DNA of 64,000 nt. It comes from Ascaphus truei (Eukaryota > Chordata > Amphibia > Anura > Ascaphidae). The notes under the pieces are model-generated. The model was not told the DNA's origin. It saw nothing but the letters and a program-made list of their open reading frames with translations, and searched no databases. Every line of letters begins with the position of its first letter. The first letter of the stretch is position 1. Location: positions 54,147,087-54,211,086 of the forward strand of contig CM071570.1 in assembly GCA_036426205.1 (NCBI GenBank), in the 5' to 3' direction. The position numbers were made by a program, and so were the translations under genes. This document shows, piece by piece, positions 10,987 through 53,188 of the stretch.

Positions 10987-12008
10987 TATATATCTTGGTC
11001 TGACACATAACTATTTCAATGGGAAGTGCAAAGTACCATACCAAAATAATATTAGGGTACCACTTCTTACATCCCTTTGTCATCATAGCCTATTGACTGA
11101 AATAACGTTAGGATACTCATGGTCAGCTTGTGATTAACGTCACGTTTAGCGGCGACCTATTTTTTATAATGATATTTCCCTGTGCTAATCTTAACGGAGT
11201 TTAGTGGATCTGCGATGTCAGGCTAACGGGACATTAGCATCTTATTTGCCTATGCGTTGCTCTAACGTTCGTAAATCCTGTAACTGAGCTTTCCTCTCAG
11301 CTGATACTTTCCTTGTAAAACAGGATCTTTTATTTAGAAATGAATTACAGCAATAAATCACCTAGACTGGGTTGCTGGCACCACCCAGTACTAGGGGCAC
11401 TTCACTTAGAGGGCACTGGAAACAGCAAGGGGTAGGCTTGTTGTAGAAACGGTGACCGATCAAGTAATCTAGCACTTTAGCCAGAAGCTCATCCTTCCAC
11501 CACTGCTTGGAGGAATCTTGAGAGCCTACTCTAACTTGCCGCCACCTCCAGCTGGTAGGTCCAGAAGCAGGGATGCTGCGGCACCACTCAGCTATAGTAG
11601 CCTTACATGGTTGTCTGCAACTAAAAACTGGAACTGCAATAACTAAGAAGTTATAACTCTGAGCTGAACTAACTTGGACCAAGCTCAGCACTCTTATTTG
11701 CAACCCCTCCCTGGCAGGTTCTGTTGGATGGGATTAATGAGGGATTGGGAGATCACAAAGATGACAGAGGACAGTGGATGATAGAGCCAAGGCCCCAGAC
11801 AATCACTATGAGGGTCTGGTTTAGAAAGTGATGTAGTCAAGATATGTATTGTGAATTGTGGTGATGAAGTACTTAAATATGTATGAGGAAGTGATTTTAC
11901 AGAAAACAAAGTATGTTTCAATAAACAGCACCACTGCGTTTTCTAAATTGTAAAAAAGCTTACACTCTAATAGGGAAGTAGACTTACAGGAAATAATGTC
12001 ATTGTCTA

Positions 12009-12564
12009 TGTAACAGGGACTTATCCTGGTTTAAATAAAGAAGCATCAGAGCTCTGAGAATCCAACAGAGAGATAGTTGATTGCAGCCACTCAATTAACT
12101 AGTCTCCACCTGGACTAATGAGAGCTCTGTAAAAAGCCTCCTGTTGGAAATAGGAGAGAGATTCCTTAGCTCACATTTGGGCTGACAGAAGGAGAGCAGA
12201 GAAGCCTGCACACAGACACTGTCTTGAGTACAAAGGCTGTGCTGAGATCAAGACACCCAGTCACCCGGAAACCTATATTTCCTGGACACAGAGGACTCAG
12301 GTACCTGCCAGAGACTGACATGGAGAGCCACCTGCTTAAGGTACTTCCTGAGACTTTGGGGTGATAGGCTGGTAATGGGAATATCCCTCCAGTCCTGCAG
12401 ATAGGGTCTGGGGAAATAAGTTAGCCCTTACAAAGGGATAGGGGCTTGTTATTTTTTTGTTTTTGTATGTTTTGCCTGGCTAAAGGAACAGGCTCAATAA
12501 AGCCAAGATATAATTTCACCCTAAAACAGTCTCCATTTGCATACCTCTGCACACAACTCTCACA
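12009..12564 (+). mobile_element. solo LTR (556 bp), same family as the 47940-53067 element
   Basis: It begins TGTAACAGGGACTTATCC and ends ...CTGCACACAACTCTCACA. Over its whole length it is clearly similar to the reverse complement of the LTRs at 47940-48477 and 52548-53067, including the CTCAATAAAGCC polyadenylation block near 12495. Flanks GTCTA (12004-12008) and GTCTG (12565-12569) agree at 4 of 5 bases, consistent with an aged target duplication. No internal region remains. Confidence 0.85.
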
Positions 12565-41090: not shown

Positions 41091-42170
41091 GAGCATTTCC
41101 TTATTAAAAAAAAGAAAGAAAATTCCCATTTCAGCCGAAAACGGCCTGATACGCCTCTTCAGCGGATATAAAATAAGTGTGAGGATCACTGGGAAGTCCC
41201 GCCTCCGTCACTCATCCCGCGACGTCACGGGTGACGCGCGCCAATCACAACCTGCGCCCAGGTGCTGCACCTCTAGGAGAGGAGACACTGCTGGGCCCGG
41301 CTCCAGGCTCCACCCCCGTGACGACATGAGCAGTGCTCAGCGCGCTCTGACTACGCGCAGACACCGCACCAACACAGGCACTCAAGGGGTTAATGCTATC
41401 CATTATCCCACAGCTGCTACTGACTCCGACCCTCCATGTCGGTACACAGCATACCTGTGATTACTCCTTACCCTGCACTTACCTCCATAGGGGGTACCAA
41501 TATCTCTGCAGCCTGGAAGCTTGTGTGCCCAACGAAATGTCGACTTAAATGTCCTGCATCCTGTGGTACAATAGGAAGACATTTGTAGATACTAGGATAC
41601 AGCGTTCCCAGTGTACCGTGCTCAGCTGCAGGAAATCTTTAAATGTCCATTTAGAATAATGCCTCTAATTGAGGAAAGCATTTCCTTATTAAAAAAAAGA
41701 ACGAAAATCCCCATTTCAGCCGAAAACGGCCTGATACGCCTCTTCAGCGGATATAAAATAAGTGTGAGGATCACTGGGAAGTCCCGCCTCCGTCACTCAT
41801 CCCGCGACGTCACGGGTGACGCGCGCCAATCACAACTTGCGCCCAGGTGCTGCACCTCTAGGAGAGGAGACACTGCTGGGCCCGGCTCCAGGCTCCACCC
41901 CCGTGACGACATGGCAGTGCTCAGCGCGCTCTTACTACGCGCAGACACCGCACCAACACAGCACTCAAGGGTTAATGCTATCCATTATCCCACAGCTGCT
42001 ACTGACTCGACCCTCCATGTCGGTACACAGCAACACAGCATACCTGTGATTACTCCTTACCCTGCACTTACCTCCAGAGGGGGTACCAATATCTCTGCAG
42101 CCTGGAAGCTTGTGTGCCCAACGAAATGTCGACTTAAATGTCCTGCATCCTGTGGTACAATAGGAAGACA
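41091..42170. repeat. tandem duplication of a CpG-rich unit (offset 585 bp)
   Basis: About 490 bp beginning 'agcatttccttatt' and ending 'acaataggaagaca' occurs twice (41092-41581 and 41677-42170) with few differences. Shared parts include 'cgcgacgtcacgggtgacgc', a CCAAT-type word and a polypurine stretch. The spacer is about 95 bp. The layout would suit tandem terminal repeats of a retroelement, but no coding region is attached. 42171-42473 is unassigned. Confidence 0.85.
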
Positions 42171-42473
42171 TGACATCATCCCTTGCAGCTTCCTATTGGC
42201 TCGCGTCACCTGGGCATTTAAACTCCACAGAGATACTGGCACCCTTACGGAGGTAAGTATCTTTGGAAAACAGGGTGTCCCCTCAGCTGAAATTAACACC
42301 GTTCAGCTCCGTTGACTACCTGCTTCAATCCTACCACTGAAAAAATATGAAGTGCAAGGTGTTTTGCTGCTTTAATATACTTGGCACACAAACCTAGTTA
42401 CAGGACTCACAGTGAGCATCTCAGTCAGAACTCTGAAGAACATGCTTCTAAAACGTAGGGTGGAGCTATATAT

Positions 42474-47331: not shown

Positions 47332-47914
47332 TTAGTAGGGATCTTAACCCGTCTAAATAGTGCTCCAAATAGGAAGCCTGTATCTAGCTGAAGAGTCCAG
47401 CGGGGACTGGTTAATTGCAGCAAGATACAATTAGCTAGTCTCCATCTGGGTCATCAGTCAGGTAGAAAAGCCTCCTGGGTAAAACTGCAGGAGATGTCTT
47501 GATCACAGAGGGACTGTGGTGCCAGAAGAGACTCACAGGAACAGTTGTCTTGAGCACAGAAGGTCTGTGCTGCCACCAACTGCCCAGAAACTAGACCCTC
47601 TACATCCAGGGCGCAGCAAACTCTGGAAACCGCCAGAGTGGCCACCTCAACGGCCACAACCTAGAGACTAACATAAAGGGCCCCCTGCTTACAGTCTTTG
47701 GACTTTGGGGCCATAGGATGGCAAGAGGCCTATCCTCCCAGCCCTGCAGATAGGGACTGGGAGAGTGAGTTAGTCCTTACAAAGGGATATATTTATATAT
47801 TTATTTGTTGCTTTCTTAAAAATGTATTGTTTGAAGCTACGGGCTGAATAAAAGCCATGGTTTATTTTCCCCAAATATTTCTCCCTGGATGTACCTCTGC
47901 ACATGTCTCCTACA
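47332..47914 (+). mobile_element. diverged solo LTR related to the neighbouring element
   Basis: Shared ordered words with the 12009-12564 LTR ('gctagtctcca(t/c)ctgg', 'aaaagcctcctg', 'ccctgcagatagggact', 'ttacaaagggata', 'tgtacctctgcacatg') show homology throughout. It ends CTCCTACA, but the start reads TTAGTAGGG and no target duplication matches. It lies 25 bp from, and opposite to, the LTR element at 47940. Confidence 0.7.
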
Positions 47915-47939
47915 GGATCCTTTCTCTTTTTTTGTTTAC

Positions 47940-48477
47940 TGTAAGAGATGTGTGCAGAGGTACATATAATGGAGACCGATTTGGGTGAAATTATATCTTG
48001 GCTTTATTGAGCCTGTTCCTTTATCCAGGCAAAACATAAAAAAACAACAAAATAACAAACCCCCTCCCCCCTTCGTAAGGGCTAACTTACTTCCCCAGAC
48101 CCTATCTGTAGGATTGGAGGGATATTCCCATTACCAGCCTATCATCCCAAAGTTTCAGGAAGTACCGTAAGCAGGTGGACCTCCATGTCAGTCTCTGGCA
48201 GGTTCCCGGGTCCTCTGTGTCCAGGAAATATAGGTGTATGGGTGTCTGGATCTCAGCACAGCCTTTGCGCTCAAGACAGTATCTGTGTGCAGGCTTCTCT
48301 GCTCTCCTTCTGTCAGCCCAAATGTGAACTAAGAAAAATCTCTCTTGTTTCCAACAGGAGGCTTTTCTTACAGAATTAATTGGCCAGGTGGAGTCTGGTA
48401 AATCGCCTGCTGCACTTAACCAGATCCATGCTGGATTTTAGAGATAGTTTCTTCAACAGGGATAAGTCCCTGTTACA
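47940..48477 (-). repeat. 3' LTR (538 bp)
   Basis: On the minus strand it begins TGTAACAGGG and ends CATCTCTTACA. It differs from the 5' LTR by scattered substitutions and small indels, so the insertion is not brand-new. Confidence 0.9.
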
Positions 48478-48479
48478 TA

Positions 48480-48487
48480 CCTCCTCT
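48480..48487 (-). other. polypurine tract
   Basis: The minus strand reads AGAGGAGG followed by TA and then the 3' LTR start TGTAACAGGG. This is the expected place for plus-strand priming. Confidence 0.7.
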
Positions 48488-48536
48488 GTTTGTGGGAAGC
48501 TTGGGCTTACCATGGCCAAAGCCCATCCTTCCACTC

Positions 48537-51500
48537 TCACTCGAGATATCTCTGCGGCTCGAATGAGAGTGGATAGAGGAAAAGAACCTTCATTCTCACT
48601 GGATTGGAGCCCTTTCTCCAGGTTATTAGTGTCTCCTCCAGAAGGTGCTTGAGATCAGCACTCCTCAGTTGCTCGAGGAAGACTTTTTCCAAGTACAGTC
48701 TTTCTACTGACCGCGTGGTCATGAGATTTCCCCTGCATCGGGCGATCCTCTCTTTGTAGGCAGACTGTATGACGACAGTCGCAGAGCGTTTACGCAAATA
48801 GCTTTCTCTCTCTAGCTTTTCCATGGACTCCAATTTAGCACTAAATGTCCATTCCTTGTAACCATTGCTCAGGTCTTACAAAGCCTCTGCCAGCTTTCTT
48901 TTGAATTCTGTCTGATGTTTGAAATCTATTTCTACTATCCTAGACTTGTGCCATTTCATGGTATCACTTAAAAAGCATTCAAGAATAGCTATTTGAGTTT
49001 TCAGCTCTTGAAGCTGTCCTTCTGCACTTATTTTTTCACTCAATGCAGTTGCCAGTTCAGCTTCTTTGGAATTGAGATGCGATACCACATCTCCCAGTTA
49101 ACTCAGAGTTTAGGCTTAAATCTGTTTCCTTTTCTCTATTTCTGATCTGCAGCTGCCGGTGCTCCTCCCGGACATTGTCCAGCTCCAGCTGCAGACGGGC
49201 CCTCTCATTGTCCAGCAATTTGCAGTCGTTGGCCATCTTGGCCTCATAGCGCAGTGTCCGGCTGGCCAATTGATGAACAGACATCTCTTCACTCTCTTCC
49301 TTTTAGGTGAGCTGTATCTTGAGCTCAGCAATCTGCGTCTGTAGAGCTGTAAGTTGCTGGGATGTGTGTTTAGCTTCCAGCTTAAGCTCTTTCACTTCTA
49401 GGCTTTGCTGCAAGTTCAACTCATCAGCAAGAGATCTTTATTTCTTGAGTGCATCCTGCAATTCGCCACTCAGGGTCTTCATCTCTTCACTGTGCTTTCT
49501 CTGAGCTTGCTTCCACGTATCCTTCATATTTTGGAGCTCTGCAGATTTCATCCCCAGAGTCGTTGCTGCTTGCGATTTCCACGCCTCTTTCTCCTGGGCA
49601 TACTGACTTTTAGGGATGGAGCAGCCGCTCTGCTTCTCCATCTCTTGCTCTAGTTTCTGGACCTTCTCGTGCTCCCTCTCATACAGAGTCGCTTGGCCTC
49701 CAGCGACGCTATGGTGATGCTCAAGATAGCCTTCAGTTCCTCATACTGTTCTGCAAGGACATACTTGGTTCTTAGACGTTCCTGTACTACTTGTACTTCT
49801 TTAGCAGTGTGCAGATTTTCTTCTGCAGAGTTCACTCCTTCTCCTAGGCATTCTGGAGGTGCGTGCGCAGATCTTGCAGTTGGTTCTGCAGAAGGTGCTC
49901 TGCTTGTGTGTGTTGTTCCAATGCTTCAACCTTTTAATCTTCCAATAATTTCTTTATTTTTTGTAGCTCATGCAGCTTTTCCTTCTTTTCATTGATGTGG
50001 TCAGTCAAATCAGAATTTTCTTCTTTCGGCCTTGTATTTTCTCTTTTTACAGTGTCTATAAATATGATGGCCTCTTCAATAATCCTCCTTCCACTTACCC
50101 ACTTCTGAGTTGAGACTCCTGATCTCTTGGCATGAGACTTCTATCTCTAGGTTAAGGGTATGAAGCTCCGTCTGAGAGACTTTAAGATCCATACTAAGGG
50201 GCCTATGCAGAGAGCAGCGAATTTTCGAAATTCGCCATTTTTTGGAGATAATCGCGCAGAAAACAGCAGAAAATGGAGATTTCCGAAAAACGCGCCAATT
50301 TTTCTTTTCTATTTGTAAAACTCGCCTCGCGGCTGGCGAGAACCGCAATCTCGCCAGTTTAAAAAATATCCGTATGCAGAGAGGCGCGAACGGCATCTAG
50401 CGGCTGTTCGCGCCAATAAAATGGCGCGATTGTCTCCGTTTTGCCTCGCCAAAAAAAACTGCCGCTCGCGGCCATTGCAAAGGGGAAAAAAAAGGCGCGA
50501 ATTTGTTTTAACACATTTCTGAAGCGCGCATCTCGCCAATTTAAACTCGCCACACGCATCCATGTTAAACATAGCAGAATTCGCACTTTTCTGCATATGG
50601 AGATTAAAACTCTCCAAAAAAGCTACTTTTTAATAAATTCGCCAATTTTAAAATTCGCTGCTCTCTGCATAGGCCCCTAAGACTGTAGACAGCTTTTTGA
50701 GAGATGTCCAGCTCCTCAGGGAGACTGTGAAGTTCCTTTTTAGAGACTTCCATTTCTGTGTGGCAACTGCTGAACTTCTGGTGTGAGGCATCCAGCTCTA
50801 TGTGGAGAGTATAAACCTCATTCTGAGAGACTTCCAACTCTATGGCAATTGCGAACCTCTTGCTGAGAGACTAATCTCTTTCAGTGCGTCCTCATACTTC
50901 TGTTTCAGATTAGCAATCATTTGGTCAGACTTGCTCTGCTTTTCATCCATGGCGGTTATAGTAGTGTTCGCAGTATCTAGATTCATCCATAGATCCTCCA
51001 ACTTGGTCTTGGCCGCAGAGTAAATTGCAAGCACAGTCTTCTGTAGCTCAGCGTTATTTTCTCTCTCCAGTTCACTTCTTGGAGCAGATCACAGTTATGC
51101 CCGGCAGCTTGCAGTGCATCTTCAGGGCTGGTCAAGGGATCGTCACTCACTGGTTCCGGCTCCGCTTTCCTGGTATGGTTGGTTGAGGGTTCCTCACTAT
51201 TAGCACCGGACAGACACTTCTTTGGGTTATACGACTTCTGCCTTGGGCCCTTTGGATATTCTGTCATCTGCGTGACAAAACCTCAATTTTCTCTCGGCTG
51301 CAGGGCATCTCACCCCCCCCTTTTCCTTCACGAGATCTGCAGATGTGTCTGTTCCTTCCACGGTAAGTGAAGAACCGCTTCTCCTTTTCCACTTTTTTTA
51401 GACGACTCTGCCCCATCAGGGATACTGGGGTCTCCTTTATTTGAAACTTCAGCAGTTTAACTGTATGCGCAATGCTTTTCTTGCAGTTGTGTTAGCTGGC

Positions 51501-52177
51501 GTAGATATTCAGTGCTCTGCTGCTCCTGCCGATCACATTAGTCAAAGAGAGTGGTCTTTTCAGTGCATACCGAGTTCAGGCACCTCCACCATTCTTGGGC
51601 TGTTTTGTTGGTGTGACTTGGTTCGGGTTCCCCATAAGATATATCTTCATCCTTATCCTCATAGGACCGGAAGGGCCACTCTTTCGTGGGGTCGGGTTCA
51701 TTACAGGAACGCCACATCTTGTCCTCCATTTTGGCGGTATTAGGTGTATTTTTCTTCCTGACCCCAGGAGGTGCTATTTCAGCTGTTTTCACTATATTCG
51801 CTAGAACCCCAACTGGTAATCCTACAGGTGGGCAGACTTTGCTTGCAGAGTTCGTATCTCACAGGCGTCTCTGTAGACTTTTTCTTTTTCTTCTTTACTT
51901 TAGTAGGTTGTGATACATCAGCAGTGCTGTGTACACATTCTCTCTCATCAGTGCTACTGGATGTGCCCTTGCCAAGTAAAACTTCTGGATCTTCCTTGTG
52001 ACCACAGCGCATTGCTTACTGCTTCAGTTCCTTGGAACGTTGAAAAAAATATTCCTCTGGCTGCTGCCCATTTTCTGGGGCCACATAGGGATCATCCTCA
52101 TCATCCGAATAAGGCCTGAAGGGACACTGCTCCGTGTGGATGGGCTCTTTAAACCAGGAACACATTTTCTTCCCCAT
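48537..52177 (-). pseudogene. chimeric coiled-coil protein with lamin-rod segment, carried by LTR element
   Basis: From the 5' side: an acidic module CSWFKEP...PFRPYSDDEDD (from 52177) and a related one with PFRSYEDKDED (from 51729), separated by a Lys-rich stretch (KKKKKK). After 51270 come coiled-coil segments, then 14-residue repeats of the form SQxExxxLxxE (50681-50837 and 50090-50194), then more coiled coil. The block RYEAKMAND...NERARLQLELDNVREE, LNSKEAELATALSEK, VEID and TFSAKLE follows (49254 down to about 48820). It then has an IQ motif ATVVIQSAYKERIAR (48738-48794). The lamin-like block matches nuclear lamin coils 1A-1B in order and spacing, with one frameshift near 49090 and a shortened part of coil 1B. 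Several frameshifts and stops break the frame. The origin of the non-lamin parts is unknown. Confidence 0.75.
50198..50677. mobile_element. PIF/Harbinger-like MITE (480 bp), TAA duplication, inside the coiled-coil frame
   Basis: Inverted ends of 28 bp are identical (GGGGCCTATGCAGAGAGCAG at the tip). TAA flanks both sides (50195-50197, 50678-50680). Taking out the insert and one TAA leaves the 14-residue coiled-coil periodicity unbroken across the site, which confirms the borders. The inside is a palindrome-rich, CpG-containing sequence with many 'ttcgcc' words. Confidence 0.92.
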
Positions 52178-52528
52178 ACTTGCAGTCTGTATTTGACTTC
52201 AGCTGGGGGGCCATTTTAAAATCCCATGTTTTTTTCTTTTCTTTCACCAGTGGTGGGGTAGACTCTGGTCACAGTATCAGTCTCTTGTGTGGGTGATGTG
52301 ATGGTGATCTGTCGCAGTCCTCCCAGTCAAACTGTGGCAATGTGGCTTTCTCCAGTGCAGTTGTAGCTTTCCAGCCTGGATGCATAGCCCTTTAAATCTG
52401 GTCACTTCTGCACGTGATTCTTTGTTTTGTTACTCAGGCTGTTTGCAGGAACTGTATGCAGGCAAAAGCACAAAAATGTTCACAGGCAGTCTTCGGGGCC
52501 CCTTTGAAATTCTAGGGCCACTTTTCAT

Positions 52529-52545
52529 CCCAACTTCTGACACCA
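52529..52545 (-). promoter_or_regulatory. primer binding site, tRNA-Leu-like
   Basis: The minus strand reads TGGTGTCAGAAGTTGGG two bases after the 5' LTR. It begins with TGG, the complement of CCA, and resembles the 3' end of tRNA-Leu(CAG) with about two differences, by memory of that tRNA. Confidence 0.7.
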
Positions 52546-52547
52546 TA

Positions 52548-53067
52548 TGTAATAGATGTGTGCAGAGGTACATATAATGGAGTTAAATTATATCTTGGCT
52601 TTATTGAGCCTGTTCATTTATCCAGGCAAAACAACAAAATAACAAACCCCTATCCCTATGTAAGGGCTAACTTACTTCCCCAGACCCTATCTGCAGGACT
52701 GGAGGGATATTCCCATTACCAGCCTATCACACCAAAGTCTCAAGATGTACCGTAAGCAGGTGGCCCTCCATGTCAGTCTCTGGCAGGTTCCTTGGTCCTC
52801 TGTGTCCAGGAAATATAGGTCTCTGGGTGTCTGGGTGTCTTGATCTCAGCACAGCCTTTGTGCTCAATACAGTGTCTGTGTGCAGGCTTCTCTGCTCTCC
52901 TGTCAGCCCAAGTGTGAGCTAAGGAATTTCTCTCCTTTTTCCAACAGGAGGCTTTTCTTACAGACTTAATTGGCCAGGTGGAGTCTGGTTAATCGCATGC
53001 TGCACTTAACCAGATCCCTGCTGGATTTTAGAGATAGTTTTTTCAACAGGGATAAGTCCCTGTTACA
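52548..53067 (-). repeat. 5' LTR (520 bp)
   Basis: On the minus strand it begins TGTAACAGGGACTTATCC and ends ATCTATTACA. AATAAA lies in the block rc of 'ttggctttattgagcc' (near 52600). It aligns with 47940-48477 throughout. Confidence 0.9.
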
Positions 53068-53188
53068 TTTACGCATTACTTTTTCAGTCCACCAACACTA
53101 GTTTAATTGTCAGGGTTAGTTTTGGACACAAAAAAAAACTTGGCACTATATATGCATACTTGATGGTTGATAATGGTTGATAGCTACA

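What the first reader, a model, noticed from the sequence alone, without database searches (positions are those of the whole stretch)
47940..53067. LTR retrotransposon that carries a lamin-like coiled-coil gene instead of gag-pol
Both LTRs, a perfect TTTAC target duplication, a tRNA-Leu-like primer site and a purine tract are present, so this was mobilised as an LTR element. Yet the 4-kb inside (3.6 kb without a MITE) shows no retroviral gene. It holds a broken coiled-coil frame with blocks such as NERARLQLELDNVREE, LNSKEAELATALSEK and TFSAKLE that follow the order of the nuclear lamin rod. Capture of a lamin or lamin-like host transcript by a non-autonomous LTR element would be unusual. A solo LTR of the family at 12009 shows it was a spreading family.
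Basis: partly seen in the sequence, partly recalled or inferred. Interest (0 to 1): 0.92.

Follow-up and report, generated by a model that had tools for sequence, protein, structure and literature searches.

The report
Frog jumping gene carrying lamin rod
In what is probably a tailed-frog genome, a family of retrovirus-like jumping genes carries, where viral genes would be expected, a stretch whose closest relative among the lamins compared is the amphibian egg-cell nuclear lamin (lamin B3), and older copies also hold a stretch matching non-muscle myosin II; the family likely picked both up from host messenger RNAs and may use the resulting protein to spread.

Summary
Window 47940-53067 is a decayed LTR retrotransposon on the minus strand: 538- and 520-bp LTRs, TTTAC duplication, primer site, purine tract, no gag or pol detected. 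Of 20 other copies fetched because their LTR hit ran into the interior, 15 carry the lamin-like stretch, as do 6 of the 8 with two LTRs. The lamin reading can be sharpened: in a 33-row tree the stretch nests inside amphibian lamin B3/LIII (96/94), apart from lamin A and B2. Four older copies lack the 39-residue deletion of the window's family; one, L048, follows lamin over about 215 residues without introns. In older copies a myosin II rod segment lies just upstream (two tested; a third by eye). So the cargo is a hybrid of host coiled-coil genes in a larger frame, open for 803 and 940 codons in two natural copies of a related subfamily. Evidence for selection on the protein is weak and mixed. 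Likely origin: template switching onto spliced host mRNAs; likely mobilised in trans. No partner, transcript or function was shown. Closest known case: maize Bs1.

The parts
47935..47939 (.). target-site duplication TTTAC, left
47940..48477 (-). 3' LTR (538 bp, TG...CA)
48480..48491 (-). polypurine tract AAACAGAGGAGG
48537..48827 (-). C-terminal part of the cargo frame, IQ-like (label from reading the motif, not a profile hit)
   Evidence: one search tested a piece of copy L037 that covers it in part (only hit E 0.79)
48828..49302 (-). lamin B3-related module: about the end of coil 1A, coil 1B, start of coil 2 (domain borders recalled); 39- and 10-residue deletions against lamin B3; frame broken in this copy
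   Evidence: for this copy; for modules of other copies
49306..49344 (-). probable remnant of the myosin II rod segment (LQTQIAELKIQLT), longer in older copies
   Evidence: assigned by eye; older copies
49345..51088 (-). upstream coiled-coil part of the cargo, with heptad-rich repeats (interrupted by the insert at 50199-50676)
50199..50676 (.). insert with about 32-bp inverted ends (MITE-like), matched in none of 20 other copies, 12 of which align on both sides of the site
51089..52198 (-). N-terminal acidic domain with two similar W/PF repeats (by eye) and lysine-rich stretches
52528..52545 (-). primer binding site, tRNA-Leu-like (tRNA identity recalled)
52548..53067 (-). 5' LTR (520 bp)
53068..53072 (.). 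target-site duplication TTTAC, right
12008..12564 (+). solo LTR of the same family, 83-84% identical

Best explanation
This is a decayed copy of an LTR retrotransposon family in which no gag or pol was detected and which instead carries a coiled-coil gene with a lamin B3-related rod stretch, which it likely acquired together with a myosin II rod piece by template switching onto spliced host mRNAs during reverse transcription. Shown: LTRs, target duplications, the cargo in other copies, nesting within amphibian lamin B3 among the lamins compared, absence of an intron at a host exon border, a myosin II segment just before the lamin stretch in older copies, and natural open frames of 803 and 940 codons in a related subfamily. 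Inferred: the element moves in trans with the Gag-Pol of an unidentified autonomous element. [quoted passage not shown] The protein was probably translated, and perhaps weakly selected, while the family spread. Its most likely action is assembly into coiled-coil oligomers in the nucleus, through retained lamin coil 1B and lysine-rich NLS-like runs, where it may pair with or tether to the lamina and help the element's nuclear phase. That last step is the least certain (about 0.25).
For: Structure. Perfect 5-bp duplications also flank L017, L023, L024 and L027, with 4 of 5 bases matching for L009 and L022, of 8 copies viewed; L010 and L028 show none. Cargo in copies: 15 of 20, and 6 of 8 with two LTRs; tblastn of one 73-aa piece scored 150 of 3874 candidates, all 150 at E <= 3.9e-20, the window's own included. 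Lamin identity: a natural 396-aa frame (L037) hits three PDB sequences at E <= 0.01, all lamin A/C (best 5e-31). Of its 47 protein hits, 5 are Ascaphus truei proteins related to this cargo and the other 42 all carry the Filament domain; only the 7996 candidates sharing most words were scored. Lamin B3: identity 0.47-0.57 to nine frog B3 rows, 0.40-0.47 to eight lamin A rows, 0.34-0.38 to two B2 rows; tree support 96/94. No intron: modules run through lamin residue 117, where a host lamin exon 1 ends at a GTCAGT donor-like site. Myosin: one piece each of L049 and L052 hit 6 of 6 myosin II heavy chains at E <= 0.1, MYH9 best, E 2.1e-10 and 1.6e-7. Open frames: 940 (L047), 803 (L046), 511 (L045), 396 (L037), 393 (L041) codons. 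Selection: dN/dS 0.38-0.68 in 25 pairs between subfamilies A and A0, below the neutral-simulation median in 25 of 25 and below its roughly 5% bound in 17 of 25.
Against: Selection evidence is mixed. Third-position differences over those at positions 1 and 2 gave ratios of 0.85-1.31 in 12 coding pieces (9 above 1; two LTR controls 0.78 and 0.68), but the two lamin pieces gave 0.85 and 1.09. Over the lamin module one search found no third-position excess (A-A 0.112/0.094/0.092; A-B 0.172/0.133/0.150; near-fixed A/B differences 7/8/7), with an LTR control as uneven (0.092/0.122/0.140). dN/dS of the window's own 73-aa piece against family B was 1.14-2.47 in three pairs, and several A-A pairs reached 0.8-1.0. 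The 25 pairs share sequences and are not independent; three young A0 pairs look near-neutral (0.51-0.71). No autonomous partner was found, nor was one sought with a pol profile. No transcripts or proteins were seen. In subfamily A0 most of the lamin module has been replaced while the frame stayed open, so the lamin part was not needed for spread there. The host's lamin B3 exon 1 was not found, so the parent gene was not compared directly. The older copies with the myosin piece are interrupted by stops, and L049 also by a frameshift.
Confidence: 0.82

Rival explanations
1. The hybrid gene arose first in the host as a chimeric retrogene (for example by LINE-mediated retroposition), and the LTR element later took it up whole.
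For: Families A and B share the same lamin module with the same deletions but different C-terminal parts and flanks, so the module has moved between contexts. Absence of introns fits this equally.
Against: None direct: a single-copy host version of the hybrid was not sought separately, and none stood out among the listed hits, which are capped lists.
Confidence: 0.3
2. The cargo is a passive passenger: the long frame is inherited from the capture, and the protein never mattered to the element.
For: No third-position excess in the lamin module; window piece against family B dN/dS 1.14-2.47; near-neutral dN/dS among young A0 copies; the lamin part is replaced in A0.
Against: Natural frames of 803 and 940 codons exist in subfamily A0, whose frames are 0.63-0.83 identical in DNA to those of the window's family; dN/dS between the two lies below the neutral median in 25 of 25 pairs; most of L047's frame aligns to the broken window copy.
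Confidence: 0.35
3. The coiled coil is a diverged Gag (spumavirus/ERV-L-like) or a generic coiled coil that resembles lamin by convergence.
For: A leucine-tRNA-like primer site and 5-bp duplication also occur in ERV-L-like elements (recalled); Gag of some retroelements is coiled-coil-rich (recalled).
Against: Lamins and cargo-related proteins were the significant hits (in weak non-lamin hits start at E 0.04); neighbouring coiled-coil parts of the frame do not hit lamin; no Gag domain in the Pfam scans; nesting within amphibian B3.
Confidence: 0.02

Closest known systems
maize Bs1 retroelement (passages of the review PMC13317346 read)
   Same: LTR element whose open frame is a hybrid of segments transduced from several host genes
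   Different: plant; three enzyme genes (ATPase, xylan endohydrolase, glucanase). Here a vertebrate, coiled-coil cytoskeletal genes and an abundant family (thousands of candidate places, of which 150 were scored)
crocodilian CrocERV29 (KIT ligand) and CrocERV31 (nectin3) (PMC4299795: abstract and section 15 read)
   Same: vertebrate LTR elements that captured a host mRNA and multiplied with it
   Different: one host gene each, beside retained retroviral genes or in place of env; here no retroviral gene was detected and at least two host genes are joined
amphibian lamin B3 / lamin LIII
   Same: homologous over about residues 56-270, nested in the amphibian B3 clade
   Different: no tail domain and most of coil 2 not detected; head not clearly recognisable; no introns, multicopy, inside LTRs
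Cer1 CERV protein (PMC10309623, search listing only)
   Same: a retrotransposon-coded protein that, by the title, can form giant nuclear rods
   Different: worm element; homology not tested

Membership tests
non-autonomous LTR retrotransposon | paired direct LTRs with TG...CA ends | tested here: met
non-autonomous LTR retrotransposon | short target-site duplication | tested here: met
   TTTAC in the window; perfect 5-bp duplications in 4 of 8 other copies viewed
non-autonomous LTR retrotransposon | primer site and purine tract at the LTR borders | tested here: met
   positions; tRNA identity recalled, not tested
non-autonomous LTR retrotransposon | no gag/pol between the LTRs | tested here: met
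   Pfam scans of 10 window pieces and 7 natural frames of other copies; not every frame of every copy was scanned
non-autonomous LTR retrotransposon | autonomous partner supplies proteins in trans | not tested
   no pol-profile search of the genome was made
lamin B3 | rod coil 1B homology, closest to B3 | tested here: met
   lamin B1 and Ascaphus lamins not in the tree
lamin B3 | tail domain and complete coil 2 | tested here: not met
   matches stop near residue 270; no tail domain in the frames scanned. The C-terminal CaaX end was not tested separately
Bs1-type hybrid transduction element | one frame joined from two or more host genes | tested here: met
   lamin B3 plus myosin II: L049 and L052 by search, L048 by eye and in one frame; all three hold stops
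Bs1-type hybrid transduction element | host segments without introns | tested here: met
   lamin part at the exon 1/2 border; other borders rest on recalled lamin gene structure; not tested for myosin
ERV-L / class III endogenous retrovirus | class III pol | tested here: inconclusive
   no pol found; primer site and duplication length alone do not decide

The most novel reading that the evidence does not exclude
A vertebrate retrotransposon has built its main protein out of the host's own germ-line cytoskeleton: a lamin B3/myosin II hybrid that enters oocyte nuclei, assembles with or onto the lamina, and serves the element as a structural or tethering protein in place of Gag, so that it spread to thousands of copies.
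Probability: 0.2. Interest if true: 0.95.

Novelty: new variant of a known kind. Interest (0 to 1): 0.8.

Why it matters
Transduction of host genes by LTR elements is known, but in the vertebrate cases seen here it was one gene beside retroviral genes. In this family, fragments of two host coiled-coil genes, one a lamin that dominates frog egg extracts, are joined in the only gene detected. If the protein is made, it is a natural experiment in what a lamin coil 1B does without tail or membrane anchor, and it makes testable whether an element can profit from the germ-line nuclear lamina. It also misleads annotation: an Ascaphus protein 85% identical to the cargo over 146 residues is named lamin-A-like.

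Tried and rejected
Convergent coiled coil or Gag: rejected. Codon-position bias as proof of coding selection: slight over the whole cargo, absent in the lamin module, inconclusive. L011 and L025 as possible autonomous partners (LTR plus about 215-220 bases of interior match): no LTR-element pol recognised by eye in their frames of 110 aa or more; not scanned with profiles. L008 is a solo LTR in the stretch held. Exact skipping of lamin exon 3 as cause of the 39-residue deletion: considered, but the gap does not fall on the exon borders recalled for LMNA. A lamin head in the cargo: a gap-free but weak alignment starts at residue 18 in L051; not decided. The open-frame column lists up to 953, but of three places checked two fell short (953 listed, 803 found for L046; 585 listed, 511 found for L045) and one agreed (L047, 940), so those values are not used. 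The first protein search with the 73-aa window piece found nothing. A piece from the IQ-like tail of L037 had one PDB match, E 0.79; part of the upstream coiled coil of L047 had none. Dropped before counting: of 21 other LTR hits running into the interior, among 39 listed, I fetched 20; searches left out L029 and L036 as repeats of the window and L024 but counted one copy twice (L027 and L030); two A0-A pairs under 80 codons were not scored. For the tree, 28 lamins were chosen by hand from the 165 proteins listed (one search listed 120 of 2828); P0001, P0004 and P0007 were left out; lamin B1 and Ascaphus lamins were not among the rows, and B2 has two fish rows only. Papers: no hit for 'lamin B3' with 'retrotransposon'; titles and abstract starts listed showed nothing describing this; two papers naming Ascaphus and retrotransposons were not opened; the library lacks most subscription papers.
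Full report
What is there. On the minus strand of window 47940-53067 lies an LTR element with a 5' LTR (53067-52548), a primer site (52545-52528), a 4-kb interior, a purine tract (48491-48480) and a 3' LTR (48477-47940), bounded by TTTAC on both sides. The LTRs differ at 32 of 512 aligned bases, K2P 0.065. With an assumed frog rate of 1-2e-9 per site and year (recalled, untested) that would be some 16-33 million years. The window lies at C4:54147087-54211086 of an unnamed 2.82-Gb genome. The closest proteins to the cargo are from the tailed frog Ascaphus truei, so the genome is probably Ascaphus or near kin. The best match of an Ascaphus cargo protein in this genome was 93% among 81 scored candidates, so the species is not settled; a second test did not complete.

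A spreading family. The LTR query gave 4619 candidates, the leader with primer site 2402, and the 73-aa lamin piece 3874, of which 40, 40 and 150 were scored and matched. I fetched 20 of the 21 other listed LTR hits that ran into the interior, a choice that favours copies with cargo. Of these 20, 15 carry at least 60% of the lamin region, 8 have two LTR places and 6 have both. None matches the 480-bp insert of the window copy, and 12 align on both sides of its site. Five-base duplications are perfect in four other copies and 4 of 5 in two more, of eight viewed.

It is lamin. Two window pieces hit lamin A/C best in the PDB, colinear along the rod. The natural 396-aa frame of copy L037 hits only lamin A/C among PDB sequences at E <= 0.01 (best 5e-31), over residues 166-344 of the frame. 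Pfam Filament matches it at E 2.7e-6, under the curated cutoff. Against 5.77 billion proteins, 47 were hit at E <= 1e-5: five Ascaphus proteins related to the cargo (P0001-P0004, P0007) and 42 others, all with the Filament domain.

It is lamin B3. The best true lamin by score was Discoglossus lamin-B3-like (48%). With 28 chosen lamins and five element modules, the modules form one clade (100/100) inside amphibian B3 (96/94), with lamin A (100/98) and B2 (100/100) apart. The modules of L037 (family A) and L041 (family B) share the same 39- and 10-residue gaps, which fits a single capture. Older copies L048, L049, L050 and L052 lack the 39-residue gap. L048 runs from about residue 56 to 270 of P0005 without an intron, with one stop and a few small gaps; the others cover less. 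The host lamin exon 1 on C17946 ends at residue 117, followed by a GTCAGT donor-like site in L053. Host lamin exon 1 and coil-2 matches on C17946, C8 and C7 lie about 24-36 kb apart. A host lamin B3 coil-2 exon is likely on C16809 (72% to P0005; other lamin-like matches 45-60%), but its exon 1 was not found.

It is a hybrid. In L048, L049 and L052 the stretch just before the lamin part reads like non-muscle myosin II rod. One stop-free piece each of L049 and L052 matched six of six myosin II heavy chains, MYH9 best, chain positions 1040-1080 and 1010-1050 (E 2.1e-10 and 1.6e-7); L048 was judged by eye. The window's family keeps only about 13-15 residues of it (by eye). The join lies where both proteins read LK(I/M)QL, as expected for template switching at short homology; this is inference. 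Other parts of the frame (acidic N-terminal repeats, heptad repeats, IQ-like tail) found no convincing relative.

Several lineages. Family B (L041-L044) shares only parts of the region 48826-49853 with the window element, at 79-83% (71% in a second block of L043), and has another C-terminal part. Subfamily A0 (L045-L047, P0004-like; 18294 candidates, 81 scored) has a related LTR region, natural frames of 511, 803 and 940 codons, and a remnant of the lamin module that was visible in L046 and L047, the rest replaced by another sequence. So the lamin module was gained before these lineages split and later partly lost in one, or was exchanged between them.

Coding and selection. The window copy is broken in all three minus frames. 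dN/dS between A and A0 natural frames is 0.38-0.68 against neutral-simulation medians of 0.72-0.94; 17 of 25 pairs fall under the simulated 5% bound, but the pairs share sequences. Against this, three young A0 pairs are near-neutral, the window's own piece against family B gives 1.14-2.47, and codon-position tallies show at most a slight third-position excess over the cargo (ratios 0.85-1.31 in 12 pieces, LTR controls 0.78 and 0.68) and none in the lamin module (whose LTR control was itself uneven). I read this as weak support for a translated, mildly constrained protein; a passenger is not excluded.

How it probably works. Transcription from the LTR, packaging and reverse transcription by the proteins of an autonomous element, and priming by a leucine tRNA (the site of L023 equals the recalled tRNA-Leu(CAA) complement; not tested) would move it. 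Capture needs expression in the germ line; lamin LIII is the predominant lamin of Xenopus egg extracts (passages of PMC8869099). The encoded protein keeps much of coil 1B, which mediates lamin dimer and lateral contacts (general knowledge), and lysine-rich runs in its N-terminal part, but no tail domain was found. It would be expected to form nuclear coiled-coil oligomers; any benefit to the element is inferred.

Place among known things. Maize Bs1 is the closest kind: a hybrid frame from three transduced host genes (passages of PMC13317346). Crocodilian ERVs captured KIT ligand and nectin3 mRNAs (PMC4299795). A lamin or myosin capture of this sort was not seen in the listings of my searches. 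I therefore call it a new variant of a known kind.

Noticed in passing
window 47350-47914 (left edge approximate): An older related LTR (71-78% identical in matched parts) on the opposite strand lies directly beside the element, so the element inserted about 25 bp from the end of a relative's LTR.
   Followed up: partly
window 50194-50681: MITE-like insert with 32-bp 97% inverted ends and possible TAA duplication, Harbinger-like by recalled features.
   Followed up: partly
window 41092-42171: Near-perfect direct duplication (blocks 98-100% identical, spacing 582-589 bp).
   Followed up: no
L016 4925-7333, L020 3401-5541, L026 214-1365, L044 60-905: Long frames that look like Penelope-type reverse transcriptases (GIY-YIG-like end in some); recognised by eye only.
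   Followed up: no
L045-L047; places: Subfamily A0: frames of up to 940 codons in which most of the lamin module is replaced by another stretch.
   Followed up: partly
L041-L044: Family B: same lamin module with a different C-terminal part and no window-type LTR in the stretches held, apart from diverged LTR fragments in L042; mobilising machinery unknown.
   Followed up: partly
G000 C3:221357690-222802679: Dense cluster of coil-2 exon matches (31-59% to lamin B3), probably a keratin-type intermediate filament gene cluster.
   Followed up: no
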